Made by a program: the position numbers and the translations under genes. Below the pieces are notes generated by a model, which ran no database searches, had not been told where the DNA came from, and was given only the letters and a program-made list of their open reading frames with translations. A stretch of DNA of 64,000 bases from Rusavskia elegans (taxonomy: Eukaryota; Ascomycota; Lecanoromycetes; Teloschistales; Teloschistaceae). Numbering within the stretch: the first letter of the stretch is position 1; each line of letters begins with the position of its first letter. Positions 2,733 through 54,519 of the stretch are shown here, one piece after another. Location: the NCBI GenBank assembly GCA_011316305.1, contig SAUG01000047.1, positions 1-64,000 on the forward strand, written 5' to 3'.

Positions 2733-4657
2733 ATGCCGCTCTCCTATGGCTTCATAAGCCTCGATGAGACTCAGCTGCAACGGCGACGGCATCTTCTAGA
2801 TTTCTACGGTCAAGCTGCTCAGTTGTCTGCATTGCTTGCCCTTCTTGCCTACCAGTTCCTCTTCGTCATTCGATTACTCCTTCCTAAGCTCCGTCCATCT
2901 CCCCATAAGCACAGAAAAGAGCATGCTAGCCCGATCGTATCACATTTCCAAGCGCAATCACTAGACACCAGACGAGACTGTATCTCAATATGGCGGCGCT
3001 TCATATGGTTCCTTGGTCAAGACGTTTCTTGGGGGGCCACCAGGGCTAAAGATTCTACCAGCTGGGGTACGTGGAGAGTGATTCTGATAGCAAGCATCTG
3101 GACCATCTGGTTGTCCGTTCTGGCCGTCAAAAATACTGGTGATGGTATGTTGACCTTCTGTTTTCTCCTTCTCCTGTCTTTCCATAATTTCCCTGTTGCA
3201 TTCAGATCCCATTGAAGTCCAGATCAATGATCTCAGTTGACATTTCTGTAGACTACCTCCACCTCACCAAACGCTTCGGCATCATCGCCGCCTCCCAACT
3301 TCCTCTCCACTACATGCTCGCCCTCAAATCATCCTGGTCCCCAATCTCCTACCTAACCCGTCTCTCCCACGAAGAACTCAACCCCTACCACCGAGCCCTC
3401 GGCCGCATCATCCTCCTCTTCCTCTCCCTCCACGCCTCCTTCTACCTAAACTTCTTTATCCAGAAATCCCTCCTCACCAAACGCATCCGCGATCCCGACG
3501 TCATCCTCGGTCTCCTCGCCATCACCAGCTTCCTGACCCTCGGCACCACCGCTCTTGCCTGGGTCCGCAAAAGAAACTATTTCCTCTTCTTCCTCATCCA
3601 CGTAACCACCTCCATCCTCATCCTCCCAATCCTCTATTTCCATGTCTCCCATCTGCGAGTCTACATCCTTGAATCAGCAATCATCTACACAATCCTAATC
3701 GCCCAACGCAACACCTCGGTCAAAAACATCCCCAACGCAAAACTCACACACCTCGGCAACAACCTCCTCTCCATCACCATCCCCGTCACCCCATCATCTC
3801 TCTTCAACAACAAGAAATTCCACCCAGGCCAACATATCTACCTCTCACTCCCCTCCCAAAACCGCCTCCGCCTAAACCCCTTCACCATCGCCAACCTCCC
3901 CCAAAAAGACACCCACATCCGCCTCGTCCTCCGCGCTCTGAACGGCACAACCCGTGTCCTCTCCGACACTCTTGCTTCTTCGAGAACAACACCAACAAAA
4001 ACAAAAAACATCCCCCTCAAAATCGAAGGCCCCTACGGCTCCGCCGCCAACTTCCCAGATCTCGCCACATACGACCGAATCCTGCTCGTCGCAGGTGGTG
4101 TAGGCGCTACGTTCACAATGCCCATATATCGGGATCTAATCGAGCGGGGCATCAACAAGAACAAAGGCAAAGTGAGATTCGTATGGGCGGTGAAGAGTAT
4201 GGAGGATGCGGCGTGGGCTTTTCCGTATCTGGACGACAAAGGAACGGAGGGGATCAAATTATACGTATCTAGTAGCAGTAGCGACGGGACGAAACTACCA
4301 CCAGGTGCGCGGGAGAAGGAGGAGGATGAGGGTATTGAGTTGCAAGAGCGAGAGGGGCTTTTGAGCGATGGTGTCGTTTCCGGGATCTCTCCTTCGTCAT
4401 CATCAGAATCATCATCATCATCATCAACACCCTCAACCCTCCCTCCAAATCTCACCATCATGCCCGGCCGCCCAAACATCCACGCCATCATCAACGAAAT
4501 TTTCTCCACCCACCCAGACGACCCCCATGCACCGACCAAATTCGCAATCCTAGTCTGTGGTCCAGCGGGCATGGGGGCGGCATTGAGACGGGAAGTCGGT
4601 GTATGGGTTGGTAGGGGGAGAGAGGTATGGTGGCATAATGAGGAGTTTGGATGGTAG
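2733..4657 (+). CDS. Ferric reductase-type transmembrane oxidoreductase (FRE family)
   Basis: Two exons, 2733-3144 and 3252-4657, give 605 aa. The 107-nt intron (GTATGT donor, TAG acceptor) restores the family motif DDYLHLTKRFG across the junction, while the nearer AG at 3205 would lead to a stop. The ferric-reductase membrane domain shows two His-X13-His pairs, H184/H198 and H254/H268, which ligate two hemes. It is followed by the FAD-binding region (HPGQHIYL, then NPFTIANLP), an NAD(P)-binding loop (VAGGVGATFTMP) and the terminal CGP at 573-575. The enzyme passes electrons from cytosolic NADPH across the membrane, usually to ferric or cupric chelates. A Ser- and Glu-rich, low-complexity stretch of about 45 residues (roughly 485-530) interrupts the NAD domain. 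The start at 2733 is the first in-frame ATG. The metal substrate is not shown by sequence. Confidence 0.9.
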
Positions 4658-5235
4658 ACATCGGGATCGATGGTGTAATGTATGTATTTCAGCAACTTGG
4701 AGACAATCGATGTGATTTACGTATCGTCGATATTATACTCATTCATACTCATCCCTCATGAAAATCACAAATATCATGTGCAGCTCTCATTTCTTTGCTT
4801 TCCTATTTCCTCATCTCAAGCCCTCATAAGAGGTGAATGATATACATCGAAGCCACCTCACCGGGATCCCGCATCATGCCATCCCGTCCTTAAGTCCCCC
4901 TCCAATAACAAAAAGACCGACCACCCGCCCGCCTTTTTCATCGGTATCTCATATAAACCCAGTAAGCACACAACTCAGCCATCCAACTCGTTTTTGGAAA
5001 GCCCAGCCAGTATGCAAAAGCCAATTCGGCTTTCCCTGTTCCCTTATCGGAAAAGCAAAACAAGACCCATGGTATCATTAATATCGCAACAAAACCCCCT
5101 AGCCCTCGAAGCAGCAGCAAATGAAATGGAAACATTTTTCATCGTCACACACATACACCGACGGATACCCGATGGACTGGCGGGATCTGCCAGTCGAGGT
5201 ATCGGGGACCGTTCCCTCGACCTGAAGAGATGCAA
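4658..5235. other. Convergent intergenic region
   Basis: This 578-bp spacer lies between the stop codons of the ferric reductase and the Hos4-like gene. It should hold both 3' UTRs and terminators. I see no gene. Confidence 0.4.
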
Positions 5236-8200
5236 TCACCTGAACCCATTGACCAACCCCCCATTGGTCGAAGTCACACCGTTCTCGCCCGCCTTGCCCC
5301 ACGGATCATCATGTAACACCATAGCTCTCGTCCTCAGCTTAATACCCACAAGGTGTGGATGCCGTGGTACGATATCCATGAATTCACTCAATTTAATCCA
5401 GAACAAGCTTTTCAGGTCTTGGAATTTGGGATAGGTCTCTTGGTCCAATCGCAGGGCGTCGTGCCAGGTGAACGTGAGCGGATTGATATCGGCTTGGGAC
5501 ATTTGGTTGCGGACTTGGCGCCAGAGTGACTGTCGTTGGGGTTTACTGACTTCTTTGCGCTCCCAGGCTGTGTCTGCGAGGGTGTTGTCAGCAGATGCAG
5601 TCAGCGAGCTCACAGGTTGAGTAAATCGAATTGTCGAGCGTCGAGGCGGGTAGGGTCTGCTTACATTGAGAAAGATCCAAGTCCCTGATGGCGAGGATTG
5701 GCGCTGCTTGCACGTTCGCAATCCATCGCTCATCAGCCACATTCTCATCACAGCCTGGATCAATTTCCCCCGTGGTGACAGTATACAATGGAAGCCACTT
5801 TCTGATTTCTTGAGGCTGTCTGGCTTTTTCGGGGCTTAATTCCGCTGCTCGGCGTAAGCTGTTCGGCAAGGCGTCTCTCTGCCTTTGTTGTTCCTGTTCC
5901 TGTAGTCGGATTCGGCGTCGTTGCTCACGTTCCTCGAGCTCGGCATTTCGCCGTTCTTGCTCCTCTTGTCTTAGGCGCTCTTGCTCGGCTCGTCTTTTGG
6001 CTACCTCTTCTTCACGGCGTTTCGTGGCTGCTCGAATCTCTTCTTCCTCCTGCTCCCTTCGGGCCCGCTGTTCGGCCTGATCCATCTGCCGCTGTCGTTC
6101 CATTTGTGCTTCTTCTTGTTCCCGTGCAATCCGTTGCTCTTCTTCTCGAGCAAGCTGAGCTTGCTTTTGCCGCTCCAATTCCGCCGCTCGTCGATCCTCG
6201 GCCGCTTTGTCAGGTTTGGCCTGCCGTTGGGATCCTTGGTCGGGCCCGCTCAGCACGGGCGTACCTTCTCGAACTTGCTCATGAACCACATCGTGTTGAG
6301 CATTTTGTTGCAGCGCCGTTTCGATGCCGGACATGGGCGATGGGACCTCGCTTTGCGTGATGACCTCAGTAGGCGACTTGGTTATAGGAGATGCAGAGGA
6401 GACACCCATGTTCGCAACAGGCGCTTTGCTCGGAGGCTCGCTTGGCGATTGGACAGGCTCTGGACTGGCAATCATATTGGCTACCATGGCTGGACCAGTC
6501 CTGACAAAAGTGTCACTATGCTGAGGGTCTTGCATTACAGCGTTGCCTTTCGAGTCTACCCTCCTTTTCTTTTTCTTCTCTGCTGCACCAGTAGCCTCTT
6601 CATCACCAGCGCCTCGAAGCTGGGGGCTCGTGCTGTGCCGAGGTCGTTTCTTGCCAGGCTCGGCCCTGGAAGAATGCACATCCTTGCTTGGATCTTTCCG
6701 GACCTTTGGTATTGGGATAGGAGTCTCGCTCGCCTCTCGCTTCTTCCTTCCCGCACCTGACGTTTCAAAATCACCCGACTGACGCCGTTGCTGCTCATGG
6801 GTTGTGGTTTTAGGACCATGGCTAGCCCTTCGCTTGATGTCTTGGTTTGATTTCAGATCATTTCTTGACAATAGTTTCCTCCTTGGCTTTGTTGAGTCGG
6901 ACTTCGAGGAGAGGACTCCTGCATCGCTGACAGACCTCGCGGCCTTAGGCTTGGGCTCAGGTCGACCATTCGCGTCTGAATCCCTGTCGGACAATATAGC
7001 AGAATCTTTGACCTCCTCTGGTATTGTCAGGTGCTTGTTGGAAGGTGTTTTGAGCGAGTGTTCCCGTTTAATCTCTGGTTCCGGTGCAGTTCTAACGCTA
7101 GCTAAAGATAATTGTCGTTTATTGGACGATGAAGGGGACGTTGGTAAATCGGAAGTGGACCGGCGTCCCTCTGGTTTCTTTGTACGCACCTTACGCGGCG
7201 AACTATGATTTGACCTTCGTCCACCATTAATCTTGAAATCATCGTAAGCCTCTTTCAGAATTGCGTATTCTGCTTCCCAGTTGGAGCCTTGCCTCTCCTT
7301 AGCAAGCTCATGGTATGTGAGACCTTTGAAGATACGGCGGGTCGGATTAAACCCCCGCTGACTCACAAGCAGCTTGATAACTGGGATATGACCACGACCA
7401 ATGGATGCAAGCATCGGGGTGTTACGGCCCGGCGCGAAGTCGCTGGATTCGACAGGATCTGGATCATGTTCAAGCTGACCGATTGCAAAAAGAATTTCCA
7501 GCACCACATCATGACCACCTCTTGCTGCTACTATCACAGCATCAGTCCCAACCTCTGGACGCATCTTTAGGATGTAGTCGACAACCGACAAGTCGCCCTT
7601 GCCGCATGCTTCGCGTAGTTTTGCTGGTGTTGGGTTCACCCAAAGAAGGCTATCTTGTGTGTGCTGGCTTCTTGCTGTCCTCCGGCGCGCACCTAGACCC
7701 ATGGGAGGTGGACTTCTGCCGGTGTGGCCATCCGTGGGACTCGCAGCGGAAGCTCCGTGAGAGGACTGATCGTTGTCTCGATTGTGTACGCTATGATCCT
7801 CTGAAGGTCTTCTCGGCGTGTTGCTTTCCTTAGCTGCGACAAGTGCAGCCCGGATCTCATCGTAGTCGTCGTTGTCAGTTTTTACCAGGTCAAGCGGTTC
7901 TTCGCCTTTGGCGTTGCTTTGGCGTGGATCTAGACCTGCATTTAGTAATAGTTGCACGACCTCGAGGTGTCCATTCTCCACAGCATCGATGAGAGGTGTC
8001 TCCATGTCGATATTCTTGCAATTGGTGTCGCATCCGGCATCTAGCAGCAACTGAACAACATCAGCGAGGCCCTCCAGACTTGCGATCTGTAATGGCGTAT
8101 TTCCAGCATTGTCCGGGATATCAATGTCCTGTGGCCGCTCCTTTAGCCACTTCTTCGCCTCGTTGATGTCCATTGCACAGGCGCGAGCGAGCAGCGTCCT

Positions 8201-9172
8201 CCCATTTCTGTCGCGGTTCTTCTTGTACGACAGTTTGGCGGGTGACATGACGCTGAGGTCAGCCGATGCAACTTTCTGCAGATGTCGATGGCTGTGGATT
8301 GAACTGCTGTCATCAGAATCTCCATGGGCATCTTCTGAAGTTTTGTGTTGACGGTTTACCACTAGTGGTGGAGGTATCTTCTTCCGTTTATGCTTTTCTG
8401 ATAGATCCGCTGATTGCGTTGACAGTGCTCGCTTGCGCTGCCGTGGAGGAGACTCGGAGCGGTGACGGCCGATTTCATGATGACTCGCATTTCGGGTGCC
8501 CCGTCGCTCTTTCCGGTTTGCAGCAACAGAATTGGGATCGCTCTTTCCTCTCTTCTCTCTCTTCTTTCGGTCCTGATCGTCCGTGACGCGAGCTAATTTC
8601 CGCTTCCGTGATGGGATGTGTTGTTGTTTGACACCTTCATCCATTGCAGGGCTGGAACGACTGCGGTCGGACAATGAATCGGAGCGCTGAGACGAATGAG
8701 CTCGAGCTCCTGGTGAGGAGACTGTAGAGCTCAGATTGCTCGAAGGTGGGTTGTCCTTGATAATCTTGTCCTGCGAGGTCCGTTTACGCTTGAGTGAAGG
8801 CCTGTCGGTGCCATTGTCGTTTCTTCTGTCATTGTCGTAGACCATGTGGAAGCCATTGGTCCTTGGGTGATGGGCAGCGTCACGATCAGTCTTGTCCTCG
8901 TTCTTGATCGGTTTCCCTGTTGATCGGTGAGAGGGTTCTTGCTTGCCATCCAGAACGACCGTTTCTGCCTCTGAGTCACTTCTATCGCCGGCATTCGTAC
9001 CGTTGCTTTCAACAGCGGCTTTGTTGGACTCAGCGACTGGGATTTTCGCCGACGGGACGGTCGTGGTCAAAGCAGTGGTGTCTACATGTTGCATAATTGG
9101 GTCATGAATGGCATCTGAAGGCTGGCCATTGGCCTCATGAAGCTTAGGATCGGCCACAGGGTCATGGTTCAT
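5236..9172 (-). CDS. Ankyrin-repeat nuclear protein, Hos4-like (Set3 histone deacetylase complex)
   Basis: Exons 5665-9172 and 5236-5573 (minus) give 1281 aa. The 91-nt intron has a GTAAGC donor and a CAG acceptor, and the junction reads LSQYTAWERKEVS. The first 320 residues are basic, Ser-rich and disordered. Ankyrin repeats occupy about 325-440 (DNAGNTPLQIASLEG, then TPLIDAVENGHLEVVQLLL), with a second ankyrin-like stretch at about 515-640. A long Glu/Arg/Gln coiled coil covers about 984-1100. The conserved C-terminal segment (DERWIANVQAAPILAI to the end) is typical of fungal Hos4-type proteins. In yeast Hos4 is a subunit of the Set3 histone deacetylase complex, which represses transcription. 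Assignment rests on repeat layout and C-terminal motifs that I recognise, not on a search, so a related ankyrin regulator is possible. Confidence 0.8.
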
Positions 9173-43672: not shown

Positions 43673-44899
43673 GTTCTAATTTATTATTTAAACGTTTTTA
43701 GCTCGGTATATATTATTTATAGTACGAGTATATTAATATCGATATATAGTACTCGTAGTAGTTATAGCCGTAGTAAAGCCCTTTAGATAGAATTATAATA
43801 AGCTAGCGCTAAAGCTTTTAAACCGCGGATTATAGACGTTACGGATTAACCTAATAAATATAATCTATTTATACCGAAGACGCCCGACGAAGAAAACCCT
43901 GGATTATTCTCTATTATTTAAAAAACCTAATCGGAACCCTATTAGACTGGTCGTCGGATCGGATTTTTCTATAGTTCGACTCGACTCGAATCCGAATTAG
44001 AGTCGGATATTCGGGTTCGATTTGCTAAAATGCTAAAATCGTATATAAAAGTATAACTTTAGTATTAAAATATAATTCTTCTTATATATTATACTATCTA
44101 TAAATCTCTATATTTTTCTAATAATATACTAAAGACTTTAGATATTCCTAATATTAACGTATCCTAATATTAATATATACTATTTATTAATATCTATTAA
44201 ATAGTTAATACTATTCGTATTATTATTTAATATTTATATATCTATATTATCCTTTTATATTACTATTATAGAAATCTAAAATAAAATATCTGATATAAAT
44301 ATTAATCTTCGCCTCTTTATTTTCTAGACCGATACGTCTAGCGAAGACCTTTTTACTAGATTCCTGTTAAGTAATATCTATCCTAGTTAATCTGCAAGCC
44401 AGCTTCCAAACCGATCTATAATCGGAATTCTAATTAAATTTAATTATTTATATAAAAAGTAATAATAGATTATTAAAAATATAGTAAATAAAATTCGAGC
44501 CGACTATCTAGGACTAGTATTTCGGGATAATAATAAATTTATTTAATAGAATATAGATTACTATTAAGATTTTTAATAATAGTAATCTAGTACTCCTATC
44601 GCTATAGATATTAAAGATAGGATTCGAAAGAAAATAGCCGATTTTCTATAGACGAAAAAGGCTATAGTATAAAGATAGTCGTTTTAATAGAATAAATTCT
44701 ACTAGATAGCTTTAATAATAGATAGCCTATCTAATTTTATATATAAATACTATTTTAAGGTTTTTAACTATTCTATAGCCTCCAGTTCTTTAAATATATC
44801 TACTATAAAAAAATATCTTTCGATTAATAGTTACTACGGATCCAAGCGACGTAATTTATAATCTATTATTAAGATATTACTTGTCCGCGTAAGTAGTAA

Positions 44900-46745
44900 A
44901 TAGTAATATAAAGAGATAATATAAAGCTTATTTATTTAATAATAGAAGAAGAGCTATATTAAACTAGATTTTACTTTCGATTAAAACGTCTGGAATAAAT
45001 ATCTATATAAGACTTTCTTAGATCTAAATCTACTAATCCGGACTATCGAAAACGAGAATTTTAGGAAACTACTATAAATACTTTGTCTGGATATATAGCT
45101 ATTTAAGTATATATAATTTATAATAATAATTTTTAATAAATATAAAACTATCCGCGATAGAATCAAGTCTGATTTAAAAACCGTAGGACGTATTTTACTT
45201 ATATTAGATATTTGGTCTAGTTTATAGAAGGTCGCGTATTTAGAAGTAATTATATATTAGATTAATATATAGTTTTAACTTTAGGAACGTCTATTTAGAT
45301 TTATATTTCTATCTATAAATTACTCCGGTCGTTTATAGTAACAAGAACTATTAATACTTTTAGAGTTTTTCTAGTTTAAATAGCAGCTTTTAGATATTAT
45401 TATCGATAATACTAGCTCTAACTCTACGTTAAAAAAAGAGTTTAAAAAGATTCTTAGTCGATTTAATAGTCGATAGGATCGACTATAAAACTCGCTACCT
45501 TGCCTAATTTATATAGTTAATCTAGTAACCTAAATCTTTATTAAAGTTATTAGATTATAAATATTAGGCGATAACTTTATCTATTAGCTAGATAATAAGT
45601 AAATAATAACTATTGGTACCGGTCTATTAAACGTCGTAAAAAAAGTAATATACGTAGGTAATATAAATTGAATGATTTTTATACTAATAGTATTTTTAGA
45701 TTCGCGCTATTATAATCTATTCCGATATCTCTTTTTAATATAAACTTCGCTTTAAAAAATTTTAGAATAGGGCCGATTCTGATTTTCGCGCTAGAAATCT
45801 TATTTAAGATATTCGTATTTGATAGAATTCGACTTATTTTATAATTTATAGGATATATCTACTTCGCTAAACTATTAATAAATTCTTTAAAGAAAATTCG
45901 CGAGACCTATAAATATAAGAGATTATCTTTAATATAGATAAATAGTAATCTGTTTTCCTTATAGGTAGTATACTGTAACCGTTCTATAAAATTACTTTAA
46001 TAGTTTCGCGAATTACCGGCGTTAGAATTTATCTAGTATATCGACTTTATAGTAAATTTTACGATTTCTTTACTAAAGTATAGGAAGTTATAAAGACTTC
46101 GAACTATTTTTAAAAGATAATAGTATTAATAGCTTGCGAAAAGGCTTTTACTAAACTTACTAAGTATTATTCTCGTACTAAAAATAAAGGAAGACTAATA
46201 TATAATCTTGCGAATATTTTTAATTCTATAGTAAAACTTAACTTTTATCGAAACTAGAATATTATTAAATAGAAGAAAGATATAGAAAAATATTCGGGGT
46301 ATATAGATAAATATCGGAATAAGTTTAAAAAATATTTTAATAAATACTATAGGACTTCTATTAATCTACTAAAGTATAGAGCCTGCTATAGAAAGGAAAA
46401 TAGAATAATATATAATAGTAATATATTATAAATATACTAACTAGATAATAGCCTGCTATAATTATTTTAAATAGTTTTCTTTAATAGTTCTAGCGTCTTC
46501 GAATATCTGCTTCCGAAGCTAATCGATACCTTCGCGCTAATATTACCGAAGATAATCTAAACTGGATATTTTAGAAAGATAATATTTCGAATTTTCTAAA
46601 ATTAGTATAGATAGCTCGCGATATTTTTTCCTATCTAATATCCTCGGTCGGAATTAAACGGACTTTTAGTCTCGCTAGAAGAGTTTATCGGTAGAATCGA
46701 GCTTAAATAACTCTATAGTATATAGAGCAGACGATAATAATTAAA
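44900..46745 (+). pseudogene. hAT transposase relic
   Basis: This is a RIP-damaged frame. Readable parts include the start of the catalytic core (LILDIWSSL near 45190-45230, the usual D.W.SPN) and the IIDNTSSNST box near 45400 (hAT DNASSN motif). The C-terminal region reads YNLANIFNSIVKLNFY near 46200. The dimerisation domain near 46610-46690 reads ARDIFSYLISSVGIKRTFS then LARRVYR (usual IPASS..ERLFS). Stops are TAA/TAG at expected Gln or Trp codons. The N-terminal zinc finger could not be recognised, so the start is approximate. Confidence 0.85.
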
Positions 46746-46939
46746 TATTATAATCGTACTATAGATTTAGATTCCGACGAAATATTAGAAGAGCTATAGA
46801 ATATATTTAATCGAGTAGAAATAGAGGATAACGCTATACTTCTGGAAAGGAATCTATTTAAAAAGAATTTTAAAAATATATTTGATAGATTGATCTAGTA
46901 TACTTTTTATTTAATATCAGTATAGTAATATATATAGGT

Positions 46940-47900
46940 AGTATATTCTTTCTAGACTATTATTCCTCGATCTATATAACTAGTTAAATAGTTTAATACT
47001 TCCTTCTATATCTTTATCTTTATCTTTTTCTATATTTTTATCGTTATTTACTTCCGCCTCCTCTTCTATATTTTTATCCTGACTATTAAAATTAATATTT
47101 CTAGCTAAACCTTTATTATTTCTAAATTTAATATTATTCTATATAGAAGAGTATTTCTCTACTATCTGATTCTTTTTATTAACTTTAACGATATTATCGC
47201 TATTTTTATTTTCCTTTTTATAAAGAAATTTAATATACTTATCAACCGTATTCCCGCTATAATCAAATTCTTTAGTAAATACCGTCTATTTTTCTAGGGG
47301 GTCTCGAGTTCTAGCAGACTAAAATTCTTAGAGGTCGGTATAATAGATTACTCGTTATTAGATAAAATTAACGATTAGGGCTATATACTTCGTTAAAATT
47401 ACTCTATTCGGACCGTTAATAGCGATATTAGATTAGAAAAATATTAGAAATAAATATTCCTATACTAGATAACTCTATTTATATTCGATATATTACTCTA
47501 ATATATTATTTTACTCTATTTCTACTTTATCTATTCGATAGTTATTGCTTTTTCCGTATCTTTTATAAAAGTTTTAGTACGTAGATCGTTTTCGTAATAT
47601 AATACTATATATAGATTAGTGTTTAGTATAGTATATATTACTTTATTATATTACTATAGATTTCTTTTTCGACTTTATAGTCTATTTTCTAATCTCTAGC
47701 GTTTTATTTTAATACGGCCTTCGTTTTTATATCTACGCTTTTCTAGAAATCTATTCCTTTAAGTTTTTTAATATATTTATATATTATAATACGGTCTATA
47801 CTCTGTTTCTTATAGAATTTATATTCGGTATCGGATTATTTTTTACCGCGTTTATAGTTTACGACTGATTTAGATTTCGTAAATAGTAGTTTTGATTTAG
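46940..47900 (-). pseudogene. Unidentified minus-strand reading frame inside the hAT transposon
   Basis: On the minus strand, from about 47280 down to 46950, about 105 codons read almost open (two TAG). The sequence starts near FTKEFDYSGNTVDKYI and ends in a Lys/Glu/Asp-rich tail (EEEAEVNNDKNIEKDKDKD). A second partly open stretch in another frame extends upstream to about 47900. I recognise no family. It is convergent with the transposase and lies between it and the histone-like frame. It could be a second transposon gene or a remnant of another insertion. Confidence 0.4.
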
Positions 47901-48207
47901 ATATAATAGATGGTATACTAAGTAATATAGTAGGGTAATATAATCAGTAGCTATAGAATTATCTAAAGATTCTAGGTATTATAGTAATAAAATATACTAG
48001 AAGTTTATAGAAATATATAGACTCGTTTAGAGTCCTAATCCTCTAGCTATAATATAGCCGACGATTATCTAAATAACTTTACCTCTAATCTTCTATTTTT
48101 TAATAATTAACTACTATAATAAAATATTAATATACTATATACCGTATCGTATTATACTTTATTTTATCGTTAGTTTTTCGTTCTTTTCGTTCGTCGTAGC
48201 GTAATAT

Positions 48208-48792
48208 ATAGCACGTACGAATCTAAATAGAAATAATATATTAAAGTAATATAATTAATCGTATAATAATACTAAAACTGTTCTAGATAAAAAATTAATT
48301 CCGTCCTATAGAAATATAGCGAAGACTCGAGGAAATGGAATCGAGAAAGGTAAAGAGAAAGATAAAAGGAAATTTTATAATACTATAATATAGATAATAT
48401 TCTAAGATAATATATTCTAAATAGTCTGGCTAATAATCTATCGAAAGAAATATAAATAGAAGTTTAGAACCGTCGTTTTTCGAGAAATCTATAGATATTA
48501 GAAGGGCTTCGAACCTTTTATTTCTAAAGTACCTTTCGCTAGACTATATCGCGAAATCTTTACAGACGTCGCTGCCGTAAATATAAATAGAAAAATCGAT
48601 AGGATATAAAGTATAGCGTTAGTAGCTTTATAGAATACGATAAAGAGATATATAATTACTTTTCTAATAAATAAATATATTACTTTACTATATTATTATA
48701 TATATCCGACTCTATTTATTTTTTATAGATTATTAACTAGCCGTAATCTATATCAAGCGCGTTACTATTTAGTAAAAGGACGTCAGGTTTAT
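48208..48792 (+). pseudogene. Histone H3/CenH3-like histone-fold relic carried in the hAT transposon
   Basis: One continuous frame of 195 codons broken only by TAA/TAG. It begins ATA-GCA-CGT-ACG, which is MART after reversing one RIP change, the H3 N terminus. A Lys-rich tail of about 85 residues follows. The fold begins at 48466: FREIYRY then KGFEPFISKVPFARLYREI, matching H3 [27 protein letters not shown]. A loop longer than in H3 precedes RI-SIALVAL-N (H3 RFQSSAVMALQE), then RYIITFL, and NLYQARYYLVKG at the end (H3 DIQLARRIRG). Three internal stops fall where Q is expected (RYQK, RIQS, ALQ). Loops 1 and 2 are longer than in canonical H3. Not functional now. Whether the ancestor was a true H3 variant or a divergent histone-fold protein needs profile searches. 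Confidence 0.65.
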
Positions 48793-49038
48793 TAAAAGGT
48801 TAATATAAAATCTGGAAGTCTGGCCGAAAATATAACGATAGCTAGTTAATAATAAGTTTTAAAAGATTGAAAATTCTAGAGGAGAAATATACGTCTATAG
48901 AATTATTTAGAAAAGAATAATACTATTTATATAGTACCGATATATAAGCTAATATTTATAGATAACCGTTATATAAACTAATATTAAATAGAATATATTA
49001 CCGTTTTATATTATCTGTAATTACTTTCGTATTTAATT

Positions 49039-49446
49039 GTAACGTCTTTGTATATCAAAAGGCGTTGCGTTCGAGTCTAGCTACAGCCGTGGACGTAGTC
49101 CGAGCTATTAAATAGTAAGGGAATTCTAGTATAGATTATTATAACTAATTCTATATAACCGTAAAGGTAAGATTACGATATTATAAAGCGTCTTTATTAT
49201 AAAATAATTAAAAAAAGAATAGTAGAAACGTATTTAATAATTATATTAACGACTACTAAAAGAAACTATCTATAGAAATAATAAACGATATATATTATAA
49301 GAATAGCTGTAGTAGCCGATAGGTAGCCGCCTACTAAAAGTTCTATCTAAAGGAACGGCTATAGCGGCTATAGACGGCTATAGATAATTAGATTTATTTA
49401 TCTAGCCAATCTTCTAGAGTATTTATATAGAATTATAGATATAATA
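49039..49446 (-). repeat. LTR, left copy (408 bp)
   Basis: Starts TGTAACGTCTTTG and ends ATATAATA. It is paired with 53898-54306 and is also similar to the interrupted copy at 40089-40914. Confidence 0.9.
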
Positions 49447-49870
49447 TAGCCCTTTCTATATCGTTTTTTATCTAGTCCGAATTCCGTCTACGGGATATAT
49501 AAAGGTTAACCTTTTCCCTTTTCTTTTTTCTATTAATACCTCTATTATATATTCTCGAAAAAAAAACCGATTAAAGTCTTTTTATCGTATTTAGTTAAAA
49601 GGTATTATAATACCTTTCCTTTATTTTCTATATTCCCGAGATTCTTTAAAGGAATATAAGATCGAGGTTAATAGTAATATTTATAGCGAGTATATACGGG
49701 TTTAGAGATCCTATAATCTTCTAATCTCCGATACTATTTATACTATTATACTTTTTTCCTTTTTATCTCTTTTTTTTACTAACCGTTTTCTGGGGAAATA
49801 TTTTAAAGATAAAAAGAATAAACTTCGTTCTAATATTATAAACGTTCTTAATAAATATTCCGAAGTCTAC

Positions 49871-50052
49871 TATTATGGAACAAGCTTTTATAAAGCCGAA
49901 AGATATATAATAAATTGCCCGATTAGATTTAGTACGGCTCGCTAGATTAGATAGCGGCCTTGGCACGTACCTTTTATACCCGCAGGCTTTTTCTATAGAA
50001 TAACAATCCTTCTACCACCTAATTATTATCTATATTTAACCTCGTTATAATA
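49871..50052. repeat. 182-bp LTR, left copy
   Basis: Partner of 51583-51764. Outer flank TCTAC. A short minus-strand open frame at 49763-49966 straddles its left boundary and is therefore not a gene. Confidence 0.85.
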
Positions 50053-51582
50053 AATAATAGTAATAATCGGGTCTTTTCTTCTACGTTATCTATAGGACTT
50101 TTAGTTCTAGTTTCTAGAATAGCCAGTTACCTCTGAAGTATTATCAGTTTTTCTAAAAAAATTACTAGTTTACCTATATAATTACTAGTTCCCGTAGAGT
50201 TTCTAGTAATTTTACCTGTATCTTCTACGCTTCCGAATATAGTTTTTATTTCTCTATCGAGACCTTAACGAGATCTTTAGTCTTCCAAACCTCTTCCGCC
50301 GAGATTCTAGGCCCTTCTATACCAGATTTTTACTCGAAATCCCTATCTTTTTCTAGTAAATATACGCTAAATTCGCCGGGATTAATATAAAGGTTAATCC
50401 GCCTCCTATTAGTATACTTCTAAACCTGAACGACGCCGAGAAAGTCGATTTTTTCGAAGGATTACTAGCTATACGCGCTTAAATCGCTTAAATTAAAAGA
50501 GAAAACTTTCTTCTACCTTGTATTTCTACCTTGTAAAAAATTATACTCTAGCGATAGTAAAAAGAAACTTTTAGATAGTAATAGTTTAAATAACGTATAG
50601 CGAAAGCGAGATAGAAATTCTTCGCCTAGGTTAATTAAATATACGACGAATTCAAATTTCAGTATCCCTATAAATATAAGTATTATCCGGAGAGATTCTC
50701 GTTAAATAGTTAATTCTATAGATATATCGAAGCCTTATATATAAAGAAATCGGCCGAGATATCTCCTTCTATAACTCCTATACCTTAATAAACCCCTTAT
50801 TCGGTATCTCTATCTCTATTAATTAAGTATAAATTACCTTTATCTCCTCCTAATACGCTAATTTCTGTACTAAAAATAGCTCCAATATACGAGAAAACCT
50901 CTATTCTAGTATAAACTATCGAGATCGTATTTCTAGCGACTCCTATAACGCTTCCGTAAATACCTGCCCCCTCGTACTATCGAGAAATCTCTGCCCTAGC
51001 ACCTTTTATCTCTACTAAAACCACTATTTAATACGAGAAGTCTCTATTCGTATATCTGCTATCTTAAAAACGCGCTTATATAACTATTACGTAGCTGTTT
51101 ACTAAATTTAGCTTAATATAGCCGGGACTCTGTTTAAAATCAAACCGGTTAATTAGAAAGCTCGACCTAAAAGCTCTAATTTAGCTTCTATCGAATATAG
51201 TAAAAGCCAGTTAATTAGCTGCTTTTAAATCGAACTACGTAAACGCTTTTGCCGCTAGTCCTACTAACTCCGTAGTCTCCGCCTTTTCTACTACGCCTTC
51301 TACGTTTCTACTTCCTAAACTACCTCGTTAGTACTAATTTACGTTACCCTATTAGCTACGAACCTCGCCGCCGCCGCCGCTAATTACGTTATAGTTATCG
51401 AAAAAGAGTTTAGAAAATATAGTATATAACTAATGGATTAGAATTATTATAGAGATATTAGTCTAATTACTAGAAGAGTTCCGATACGATTACTATAGCT
51501 CCTATATAATATAACCGTCTGCCCTCTTGCCGGCGCTTATTATAGTATCGAAGGCGATACCTTTTTCTCTTTTTAAGGTATT

Positions 51583-51764
51583 TATTATAGAGTAAGCTCT
51601 TATAAAGCCGAAAGGTATATAATAAATTACTCGATTGAATTTAGTACGGCTTACTAGATTAGATAGCGGCCTTGGCACGTATCTTTTATACCCGCAGGCC
51701 TTTTCTATAGAACAACAATCCTTCTACCACCCAATTATTATCTATATTTGACCTCGTTATAATA
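51583..51764. repeat. 182-bp LTR, right copy
   Basis: Partner of 49871-50052. Ends GTTATAATA, followed by TCTAC. Confidence 0.85.
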
Positions 51765-52949
51765 TCTACCGTCGTATCGAGTTCTTTTTAGATTCCGAAA
51801 AGGAAATTCGTAATTAGCGCCTTATCTAGGAATCAGATTTTCGCCGACTTTTTAGAAAGTAAAAACGTTTTATTATTTATTATCGCGCTTTAGACAAGCG
51901 TAAAAGTAATCTTGTCGTTTAAAAATAATACGTTCTATCTCGCTTTAACGAATTTAACGATTCTATAGCGTTTTACTCTTCCGTTAGTTTTACGCTAGCC
52001 GCGTAAAGGGCTTCCGTTAAATTAATACCTAGATTCGATTTAGATAATTTAGATCGTTTTCTAAGAAATTTCGACTTTTCCTAGCCTTTAGAGACTACGG
52101 GGTTTTAAAAAAGGTCTAATAAAAAGCTCTTTTACCGCTATTTCTTTTTTAGAGTTCCGAATTATACGTTTATATTATAAATTACTTCTAGATCTTCTAA
52201 AATTTATTTTAACTTTTATTTTTCAGCTACTATCTTATCCTATAATAATAGAGATAGATACTAATTAAAGTTTTTATTTTTTAGTTAAATATTTAGCGTA
52301 GAGTCTGGTATTTCGTTTATATCCTAGTTTTATATTTGGTTTAGTTTATATTTATTTTTTTCTATAGCCTTAACTATATTATAATATATTTTCCAGATAT
52401 AGTCTATCTATAACTATTAAATTATCTTTTAGCTTTTATCGTATTTTAATACTAACTATTATAGGAGGTAATAGTATTTTTATTAAATTTTTATTTTCTA
52501 TACTTTATTTCCTTTTTTGAATTTTTTATCCAGATTTTTGATTTATTTATAGTCTATAGTTAACGCGACGTTTAATTTTTTATATAGGAAATTTTTATAA
52601 ACTAGAAAATATATTATTTATATTTTTATCCTTCTACCGATTATATTTTCTTCTATTATTATACCCGAGATTAATTCTTTCTATTTGTTTCCGAGGACGA
52701 TATATTATCTTAAACTATTAATTATTATAAAACTTATTATTCCGATTAGTCCGTATTTTATTTTAATTTCGATATCTATAATTCTATTATCTTTTTTAGT
52801 ATATTTTTAGAGATACCCTATAATTTAGTCGTATAATCCTTTTATAATCTTATTTTCTTTCTCTCTATTTACGAAAACTATTATTTAATAACCTCCGATT
52901 TTAATTTTAAACGCTGTAGTAAAAGGTTTTTCGGTTTTATATAGTTTAA

Positions 52950-53890
52950 ACTCTACTATTAGTCTTTCTATTTTTTTCGCTCTCTTTAGTTCTATAGAAT
53001 ACTATTCTAATCCTTTTTTATCCGATAGATAGATTAGGTAATAATCGTTATAGCAGATTATCTAGCTTTCCGCTATATATTTTCTAGCTTTTTCTTCGGA
53101 TAATTCCTCCGTTATATTAAACTAATATTTAGTTACTTCTATTATTTCTTTAGTTAAATAATTTCTTTTTAAATATTTTATCTTTCTGTATAAATAATAA
53201 ACTTTAGTCCGTAATTTTTTAGACTCGGTAGTATTAAATTCTATTAGATTTCCTTTAGGCTATCTTTTAATAGGTCCTATTTTATTAAATATCTATTTAT
53301 CTAAATACGTTTTATACTATCTAATATTAATTCTAGTCGCTAGTTCGATAAGAGATACTAGCGAGTTCGGTTTTTTAATTACTACTATAGTTTCTTTAAT
53401 TTTTATATAGAGTTTTTTATAAAAGTAAACTTTTAGAATTAAGTCCTCCTAGTCTATTATATAAGCTAATATTCTAAAATAAATAACGTAGATAGCTACT
53501 AACTTTTACTACTTTAGAACTATTAGTTTCCTTTCTATTATTCTATTTTTATTATTATCTTCGAAGGTTTCTTTTATAGCCGTAATCAGATTGCCGAAGA
53601 TATAAAAGATCTATAATATTTTATCTTCCTTTTAATTTTCCGGATTATTAAAATAATCTTCTATATAGAATAATATCTAATTAAAAACTACTTTTCTAAA
53701 TTTAATATCGTAAATAGAACTTTAATTATTTTACTAGGAAACTGATTTATATATAATATAAAATAGATATTTATCTAGATAATCTAAGATTTTAAAAATC
53801 TTCTTTCTTCTTTATAGATATTAGAAATTACCGCTTTAATAGTATTATTTCGATCTATAGAACGGGATAATAAGACCGATATAGTAAGTC
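52950..53890 (-). pseudogene. Ty3/gypsy gag relic, minus strand
   Basis: Directly inside the right LTR the minus strand reads a gag-like protein: IYFILYINQFPSKIIKVLF near 53740, then further blocks ending near 53200 in KGNLIEFNTTESKKLRTKV-like sequence. Spacing and composition match retrotransposon gag (QFPDD.IKV.F...L..). Interrupted by TAA/TAG. The family is recognisable but not the exact boundaries. Confidence 0.6.
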
Positions 53891-53897
53891 GTTAAAA

Positions 53898-54306
53898 TAT
53901 AACGTCCCTGTATATCAGAGGGTATTACGCTCGAGCCTAGCTATAGCTATAGGTATAGTCTAAGCTACTAAATAGTAAAGGAATTCTAGTATAGATTATC
54001 GTAACTAATCCCGTATAACCGTAAAGATAAGATTAAAATATTACGAGGCGTCTTTATTATAAAGTAATTAAGAAAAGAATAGTAGAAACGTATTTAATAA
54101 TTATATTAATAATTAACGAGAGAAACTATCTATAGAAATAATAAACGATATATATATTAAAAGTAGCTGTAGTAGCCGATAGATAGCCGCCTACTAAAAA
54201 TCCTATTTAAAGGAACGGCTATAGCGGCTACGGACGACTATAGATAATTGAATTCGCTTGTCTGGCCAATCTTTCAGAGCACCTCTATGGAATCGTGGAC
54301 GTAATA
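53898..54306 (-). repeat. LTR, right copy (409 bp)
   Basis: Starts TATAACGTCCCTG (TG to TA by RIP) and ends GACGTAATA, followed by TTAAT. It is less mutated at its right end (CTTGTCTGGCCAATC) than the left copy. Confidence 0.9.
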
Positions 54307-54519
54307 TTAATTATCGAACACGATTATAAGTCGGGTCGGATCGGGTTTTCGGATCGGATTTTTAGATTAAAATCTATAACTCGATCCGAAAGTCGAATTA
54401 GAATCTATAACCCGACCTAACCGTTTAGCGGGTCGAATCCGGGTCGGGTTACTAAAATCGGGTCGGGTACCCGACGGTTCGACGGAAACCCGACCCGAAT
54501 CGGCCAGTCTAAACCCTGT

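What the first reader, a model, noticed from the sequence alone, without database searches (positions are those of the whole stretch)
48208..48792. Histone H3/CenH3-like gene relic carried inside a hAT transposon
Seen: one frame of 195 codons, stops only TAA/TAG, starting MART-like (ATA for ATG) and containing recognisable H3 blocks in the right order, aligning to the alpha-N helix, helix 1, helix 2 and the C-terminal LARRIRG block. Three internal stops sit exactly where H3 has Gln. The frame lies between the hAT transposase and the transposon's right end, inside one 8-bp target duplication. Known: CenH3 proteins differ from H3 in a longer N tail and longer loop 1, and both are seen here. Inference: the transposon carried its own histone variant, perhaps to act on chromatin at its insertion sites or to escape silencing. 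I know of no described hAT with such cargo, though I cannot search.
Basis: partly seen in the sequence, partly recalled or inferred. Interest (0 to 1): 0.88.

Follow-up and report, generated by a model that had tools for sequence, protein, structure and literature searches.

The report
Jumping gene carrying a histone gene
In what looks like a lichen-forming fungus, a large family of mutated jumping genes carries its own version of the DNA-packaging protein histone H3; such cargo was already described in some plant-disease fungi, but here it looks like a long-standing part of the jumping gene rather than a recent theft from the host.

Summary
Window 48208-48802 holds a RIP-mutated H3-like gene inside a hAT transposon (43943-54511, 8-bp duplication), with at least 54 related places in the genome. 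Against host H3 the window frame scores 27.2 bits; the best of 1000 codon shuffles scores 4.1. The gene model needed correction: part of the 'long tail' is intron read-through, and the true C-terminal H3 block lies in frame +1 behind a 58-nt intron. With exons joined, 9 of 10 copies match Pfam Histone, best 1.1e-12. It is H3-like, neither plain H3 nor CenH3.
Known: the hAT-H3L of P. tritici-repentis (PMC3538342) and RIP-mutated H3-hATs in six Mycosphaerellaceae (PMC6710886). New: a probable Teloschistaceae host (Lecanoromycetes). Two deep lineages, A and C, differ by transversions about 8% in the transposase and 10% in the central-ORF/H3 module; B joins a C-type transposase to an A-type module. 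The histone therefore probably rode in the common ancestor and the module is exchanged as a unit. A silencing-related function is only inferred. Every copy read carries stops.

The parts
43935..43942 (.). left copy of the 8-bp target-site duplication, AACCCTAT
   Evidence: the right copy differs by one G/A, a RIP-type change
43943..54511 (+). hAT element (type A), ends TAGACTGG...GGCCAGTCTA; about 5.3 kb without the nested insertion
   Evidence: same ends and 8-bp duplications read in C202 (L009), C179 (L010) and C187 (L027)
44194..46891 (+). hAT transposase region, RIP-degraded
   Evidence: homology to the C179 copy; in the C179 copy the C-terminal piece hits PF05699 Dimer_Tnp_hAT at 4.8e-7, above its cut-off
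46951..47644 (-). central ORF on the other strand (approximate ends carried over from the C179 copy), Asp/Lys-rich end, no Pfam match
   Evidence: reading of the C179 copy; no family
48208..48245 (+). H3-like gene, putative exon 1 (reads I-A-R-T-N...)
48246..48311 (+). putative intron 1, 66 nt (GTAATA...TATAG); holds the 1-base and 6-base length differences between A/B and C
48312..48390 (+). putative exon 2, Lys/Gly-rich histone-like tail; a second intron may lie in 48391-48450, ends uncertain
   Evidence: inference
48451..48670 (+). putative exon 3: alpha-N, helix 1, long loop 1 and the first part of helix 2 of the histone fold
48671..48728 (+). putative intron 3, 58 nt (GTAAGT...TATAG in the C179 copy; donor mutated in the window)
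48729..48802 (+). putative exon 4 in frame +1: rest of helix 2, loop 2 and helix 3 (KRVTI..KD block); the gene end beyond is uncertain
49038..54306 (.). nested insertion with 416-bp terminal direct repeats (retrotransposon-like), flanked by TTAAT; not part of the hAT
   Evidence: in other copies the hAT sequence runs on directly (e.g. L010, L011)
54512..54519 (.). right copy of the target-site duplication, AACCCTGT

Best explanation
This is a RIP-inactivated copy of a three-gene hAT transposon: transposase, a central ORF on the other strand, and an intron-containing H3-like histone gene. The histone is a long-held accessory gene of this hAT lineage, not a recent capture from the host. Shown: the gene is H3-derived, sits inside the target duplication, and occurs in two lineages whose transposases and histone modules have diverged to a similar extent. 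Shown for the copies compared: type B joins a C-type transposase to an A-type module. Inferred: the intact ancestor expressed the histone together with transposase, it could pair with host H4, and it changed nucleosomes on the element or at target sites. My most likely mechanism is a histone that is a poor substrate for the host's heterochromatin marking, because the residues read at the usual K4 and ARKS positions do not match H3 (this depends on the exon model). The function step I put at about 0.3.
For: Histone homology; exon-joined X-masked rows match PF00125 in 9 of 10, best 1.1e-12, and PDB H3 at 2.7e-14 from before alpha-N to helix 3 with only loop 1 gapped. Element: five complete copies read with 8-bp duplications: window, L009, L010, L027 and L032. 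Co-divergence: transposase transversions A against C 7.9-9.6% over 3 A and 4 C copies; module A against C 9.3-10.7% over 2 A and 4 C copies. Exchange: B against C transposase 1.3-2.5%, B against A module 1.1-1.4%, close to values within one type. Coding constraint: in exons 3+4, third-position transversions 19 of 96 against 21 of 198 at positions 1+2, p=0.045; the two fixed length differences in exons 1 and 2 are 3 and 12 bases, while the 1-base and 6-base ones fall in putative intron 1. Published relatives: ESTs exist for the P. tritici-repentis H3L (PMC3538342, passages).
Against: Codon-position evidence is weak: over all putative exons p=0.082, with an earlier exon model p=0.34, and exon 4 alone p=0.52. 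Transversion divergence of the whole frame (70/553) is not lower than that of flanking DNA (42/272 upstream, 17/165 downstream). Among the 20 copies there is no third-position excess. Introns rest on sequence signals alone. No intact homologue was found (those searches are word-limited). A single-sequence fold of the frame, made before the introns were recognised, was poor (pTM 0.40, helices merged). No expression data. For B only one copy (L032) was compared in transposase and module both.
Confidence: 0.72

Rival explanations
1. Recent transduplication: a hAT captured the host H3 gene or transcript and multiplied it, as PMC6710886 proposes for Mycosphaerellaceae; RIP then destroyed the copies.
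For: Published interpretation for similar elements (PMC6710886, parts 1-4 of 7 read). The element profile scores host H3 best among the five host proteins compared.
Against: Module and transposase show similar divergence between lineages A and C. The element gene differs strongly from host H3 in loop 1 and through much of the core. Its putative introns include one inside helix 2, where the host H3 reads on without an intron (L001).
Confidence: 0.12
2. Dead passenger: the H3-like gene was acquired long ago but does nothing for the element; it is only dragged along.
For: Codon-position tests are borderline or not significant; the frame diverges about as fast as its flanks.
Against: The histone fold is still recognisable to helix 3 in both lineages although they differ by about 10% transversions. 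Fixed length differences in exons 1 and 2 are multiples of three. A deletion copy that lost the transposase keeps the module (L027).
Confidence: 0.22
3. Element-encoded centromeric histone: the long loop 1 marks a CenH3 that steers insertion to or from centromeres.
For: Loop 1 is 6 residues longer than in host H3, 4 longer in host CenH3 (by eye).
Against: The profile prefers host H3 to host CenH3 (40.3 against 33.2 bits and 37.5 against 30.4). PMC3538342 reports that the related H3L belongs to neither group.
Confidence: 0.05

Closest known systems
H3L-carrying hAT element of Pyrenophora tritici-repentis (PMC3538342; passages read)
   Same: hAT transposase, central ORF of unknown function and H3-like gene between terminal inverted repeats; about 5.6 kb there, 5.3 kb here (C179 copy); H3L fits neither H3 nor CenH3; forms without full transposase occur.
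   Different: There 26 nearly identical, mostly intact copies with ESTs in Dothideomycetes; here every copy read carries stops, the host is probably Lecanoromycetes, and two deep lineages plus a chimera are seen. Sequence homology to the P. tritici-repentis element was not testable here.
H3-carrying hAT families of Pseudocercospora, Cercospora and Sphaerulina (PMC6710886; parts 1-4 of 7 read)
   Same: hAT with 8-bp duplications, H3-like sequence, many RIP-inactivated copies in AT-rich blocks, element H3 far from the host H3.
   Different: There elements of about 9.5 kb with one or two H3-like copies, read as an intron-less transcript capture about 100 Mya; here about 5.3 kb, one H3-like gene with putative introns, and a central ORF.
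Core histone H3 (PF00125)
   Same: Histone fold from alpha-N to helix 3, including the KRVTI..KD block.
   Different: Long loop 1, different tail, strongly diverged core.

Membership tests
hAT DNA transposon | 8-bp target-site duplication | tested here: met
   five copies read, three exact and two with one mismatch; for the one C copy examined (L057) no duplication was found because its left end was not located
hAT DNA transposon | terminal inverted repeats | tested here: met
   TAGACTGGCC...GGCCAGTCTA in the C179 copy; same ends, with point differences, in the window
hAT DNA transposon | hAT dimerisation domain (PF05699) | tested here: met
   29.9 bits against cut-off 21.4, E=4.8e-7, C179 copy, X-masked
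hAT DNA transposon | RNase-H-like catalytic core | tested here: inconclusive
   PF14372 at E=0.0012, 19.4 bits, below the cut-off of 27; the N-terminal piece matched no family
histone H3 | histone fold with H3-type sequence | tested here: met
   all 60 chains shown are named as H3 or histone-domain proteins
histone H3 | conserved ARTKQTARKS tail | tested here: inconclusive
   MART-like start, but N at the K4 position and N-I-L-K/R-S instead of T-A-R-K-S; depends on the exon model
CenH3 | longer loop 1 | tested here: met
   +6 against host H3 (by eye)
CenH3 | closer to CenH3 than to H3 | tested here: not met
   33.2 against 40.3 bits and 30.4 against 37.5 bits
published hAT-H3L elements | transposase, central ORF and H3-like gene between one pair of ends | tested here: met
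published hAT-H3L elements | sequence homology of transposase and central ORF to the published elements | not tested
   the published element sequences were not held here

The most novel reading that the evidence does not exclude
A hAT lineage older than the split of Lecanoromycetes and Dothideomycetes has a histone H3 variant as a regular gene, exchanged between transposase types as a cassette with the central ORF, and uses it against heterochromatin silencing. The published 'independent captures' would then be descendants of one element lineage.
Probability: 0.2. Interest if true: 0.85.

Novelty: new member of a known kind. Interest (0 to 1): 0.5.

Why it matters
A transposon that brings its own nucleosome component would be an unusual weapon in the contest with silencing. 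The known cases were explained as captures of a housekeeping gene. Here transposase and histone module differ to a similar extent between two lineages and the module is swapped between them, which makes it testable whether the histone is an element gene under selection. It also extends the phenomenon, as far as the searches here show, to a probable lichen-forming host in another fungal class.

Tried and rejected
Tried without result: protein database searches for an intact homologue with two X-masked alignments, none at E<=1e-6 and none at E<=0.01; these need shared 5-residue words, so the negative is weak. Single-sequence structure prediction of the frame with stops read as Gln: pTM 0.40, helices merged, not used further. 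Pfam for the central ORF: none. Target duplication of one C copy (L057): not found.

My first exon model gave no codon-position signal.

Literature: eight searches of an open-access library. PMC6710886: abstract, background, results and about the first half of the discussion (parts 1-4 of 7). PMC3538342: passages. PMC4994206 and PMC8616336: passages, nothing further on H3-hATs in them. No report of such an element in lichen fungi was seen in these searches; subscription papers are not covered.

Full report
Setting. The window lies in a 44.16-Mb, 217-contig genome. Its first 34 kb are gene-rich at about 50% GC; the rest is AT-rich, mostly 12-35% GC. In the C179 element copy CpA and TpG are strongly depleted (0.17 and 0.15 of expectation) and TpA is raised (1.61), unlike the gene-rich half (1.14, 1.11, 0.62), as expected from RIP. 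A host protein of the window is 95% identical to one from Xanthoria sp. 2 TBL-2021; the named close hits are Teloschistaceae or related lichen fungi as far as I recognise the names. Xanthoria is Lecanoromycetes, Teloschistaceae. The exact species is not known.

The frame. Translation of 48208-48792 gives 195 codons and 9 stops, none of them TGA. The masked window frame alone is below the Pfam cut-off (E=0.025) but hits PDB H3 at 1.3e-5. Across copies the signal is firm: PF00125 in 7 of 8 rows, best 1.5e-7; profile against PDB H3 4.5e-9; a PF00125 search of the whole genome lists three element copies over the cut-off. Codon shuffles reach at most 4.1 bits against 27.2.

Gene model. Scanning host H3 against all frames of window 34-64 kb gave a second hit in frame +1 just downstream: the loop 2 and helix 3 block. 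In the least mutated copy (C179) the two frames are separated by 58 nt beginning GTAAGT and ending TATAG, and the split codon then reads in phase. Joining exons 3 and 4 without touching any stop raised Pfam from 1.5e-7 to 1.1e-12, with 9 of 10 rows matching, and PDB H3 to 2.7e-14 over H3 residues 40-130. Upstream, a 66-nt stretch beginning GTAATA and ending TATAG holds the 1-base and 6-base length differences between A/B and C copies. Donor and acceptor letters vary among the RIP-mutated copies: donor GT in 9 of 16 A/B rows, fewer among the 9 C rows. Whether another intron lies in 48391-48450 is open.

The element. The window copy runs 43943-54511 between AACCCTAT and AACCCTGT. A nested insertion at 49038-54306 has 416-bp direct repeats, 82% alike, and TTAAT on both sides. 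Complete copies without it: L010, 5298 bp, TTTAGAAC/TTTAGGAC; L009, CTTCTATT twice, and L027, CTCTATAA twice (read by eye). L027 lacks the window's 44337-46956 (transposase region) but keeps the module. The transposase matches PF05699. A central ORF on the other strand lies between transposase and histone gene and has no family.

Copies. Two capped searches (40 of 394 and 40 of 336 candidates scored) give together 54 distinct places with the module. A further search with lineage C scored 40 of 369 candidates; of its 11 loci read for H3 (L046-L056), 10 have a clear profile match, and L056 shows only the start, at E=0.13. Transposase rows: A 39, of which 23 have a listed H3 place within 8 kb; B 40, of which 12 do (some B-list rows are C elements, see below). 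Twelve further loci were fetched to see what lies downstream: seven hold the H3 frame, five do not, being truncated or interrupted (L034, L035, L039, L040, L044). Not every remaining row was checked. All H3 frames printed carry stops.

Lineages and exchange. By transversions, which RIP does not make, the transposase of A differs from B by 7.7-8.3% (3 A copies) and from C by 7.9-9.6% (3 A, 4 C copies), while B and C differ by only 1.3-2.5% (1 B, 4 C copies), close to the spread within a type (A 1.0-1.7%, C 2.0-2.9%). The module (central ORF to beyond the histone) shows another pattern: A against B 1.1-1.4%, and both against C 9.3-10.9% (2 A, 1 B, 4 C copies). The low A-B divergence includes the non-coding stretch between the two genes (4 of 406), so it reflects exchange rather than constraint. 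In the histone frame no informative transversion site sets the B copies apart (16 sites, 20 copies). B is therefore best read as a chimera, and one B-transposase locus (L043) even has an A-type right end. Because A and C differ in transposase and module to a similar degree, the module was probably already in their ancestor.

Selection. In exons 3 and 4, fixed A/B-against-C transversions are 11/99, 10/99 and 19/96 at codon positions 1-3 (p=0.045). Over all putative exons p=0.082. A-against-B transposase as a yardstick: 47/706, 38/705, 69/704, p=0.0024. The histone is thus compatible with coding constraint, not proof of it; the whole frame diverges about as fast as its flanks.

What is known. 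PMC3538342 (passages) describes a 5.6-kb hAT with transposase, central ORF and H3L, 26 H3L copies, ESTs, and H3L fitting neither H3 nor CenH3. PMC6710886 (parts 1-4 of 7) describes hundreds of RIP-inactivated H3-hAT copies in P. fijiensis and five relatives, read as capture of a transcript and as independent of P. tritici-repentis. The finding is thus a new member of a known kind. The probable host class, the putative introns, the two lineages and the module exchange are what it adds, and they argue for an old element gene.

Mechanism. Shown: an H3-derived gene as part of the element, kept over a substantial divergence. Inferred: expression, pairing with H4, incorporation into chromatin. On the exon model the tail reads N at the K4 position and N-I-L-K/R-S where H3 has T-A-R-K-S, in both lineages. 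If true, such a histone would be a poor substrate for K9-directed silencing (general knowledge of H3K9 methylation, recalled), which is the mechanism I think most likely, at about 0.3.

Noticed in passing
window 49038-54306: Nested insertion with 416-bp terminal direct repeats (49032-49447 and 53892-54307 as aligned, 82% identical) flanked by TTAAT, apparently a RIP-mutated LTR-type retrotransposon inside the hAT.
   Followed up: partly
window 49871-50052 and 51583-51764: Two 182-nt direct repeats, 91% identical, inside the nested insertion; not explained.
   Followed up: no
L004 (C214:42716-42916, minus strand): A further H3-like open frame of the host genome with a diverged sequence, over the Pfam cut-off and without stops in the match; scarcely related to the element histone (4.5 bits).
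   Followed up: partly
L027 (C187): Element copy with its own 8-bp duplication that lost the transposase region but keeps the central-ORF/H3 module.
   Followed up: partly
L032, positions about 3880-5630 on the reverse strand: Type-B copy carries about 1.75 kb of AT-rich DNA with long inverted repeats between transposase and module; similar spacing lies in some other B copies.
   Followed up: no
window 5588-9172, minus strand: Host ankyrin-repeat protein whose relatives are named Set3 complex subunit; used to place the organism.
   Followed up: yes
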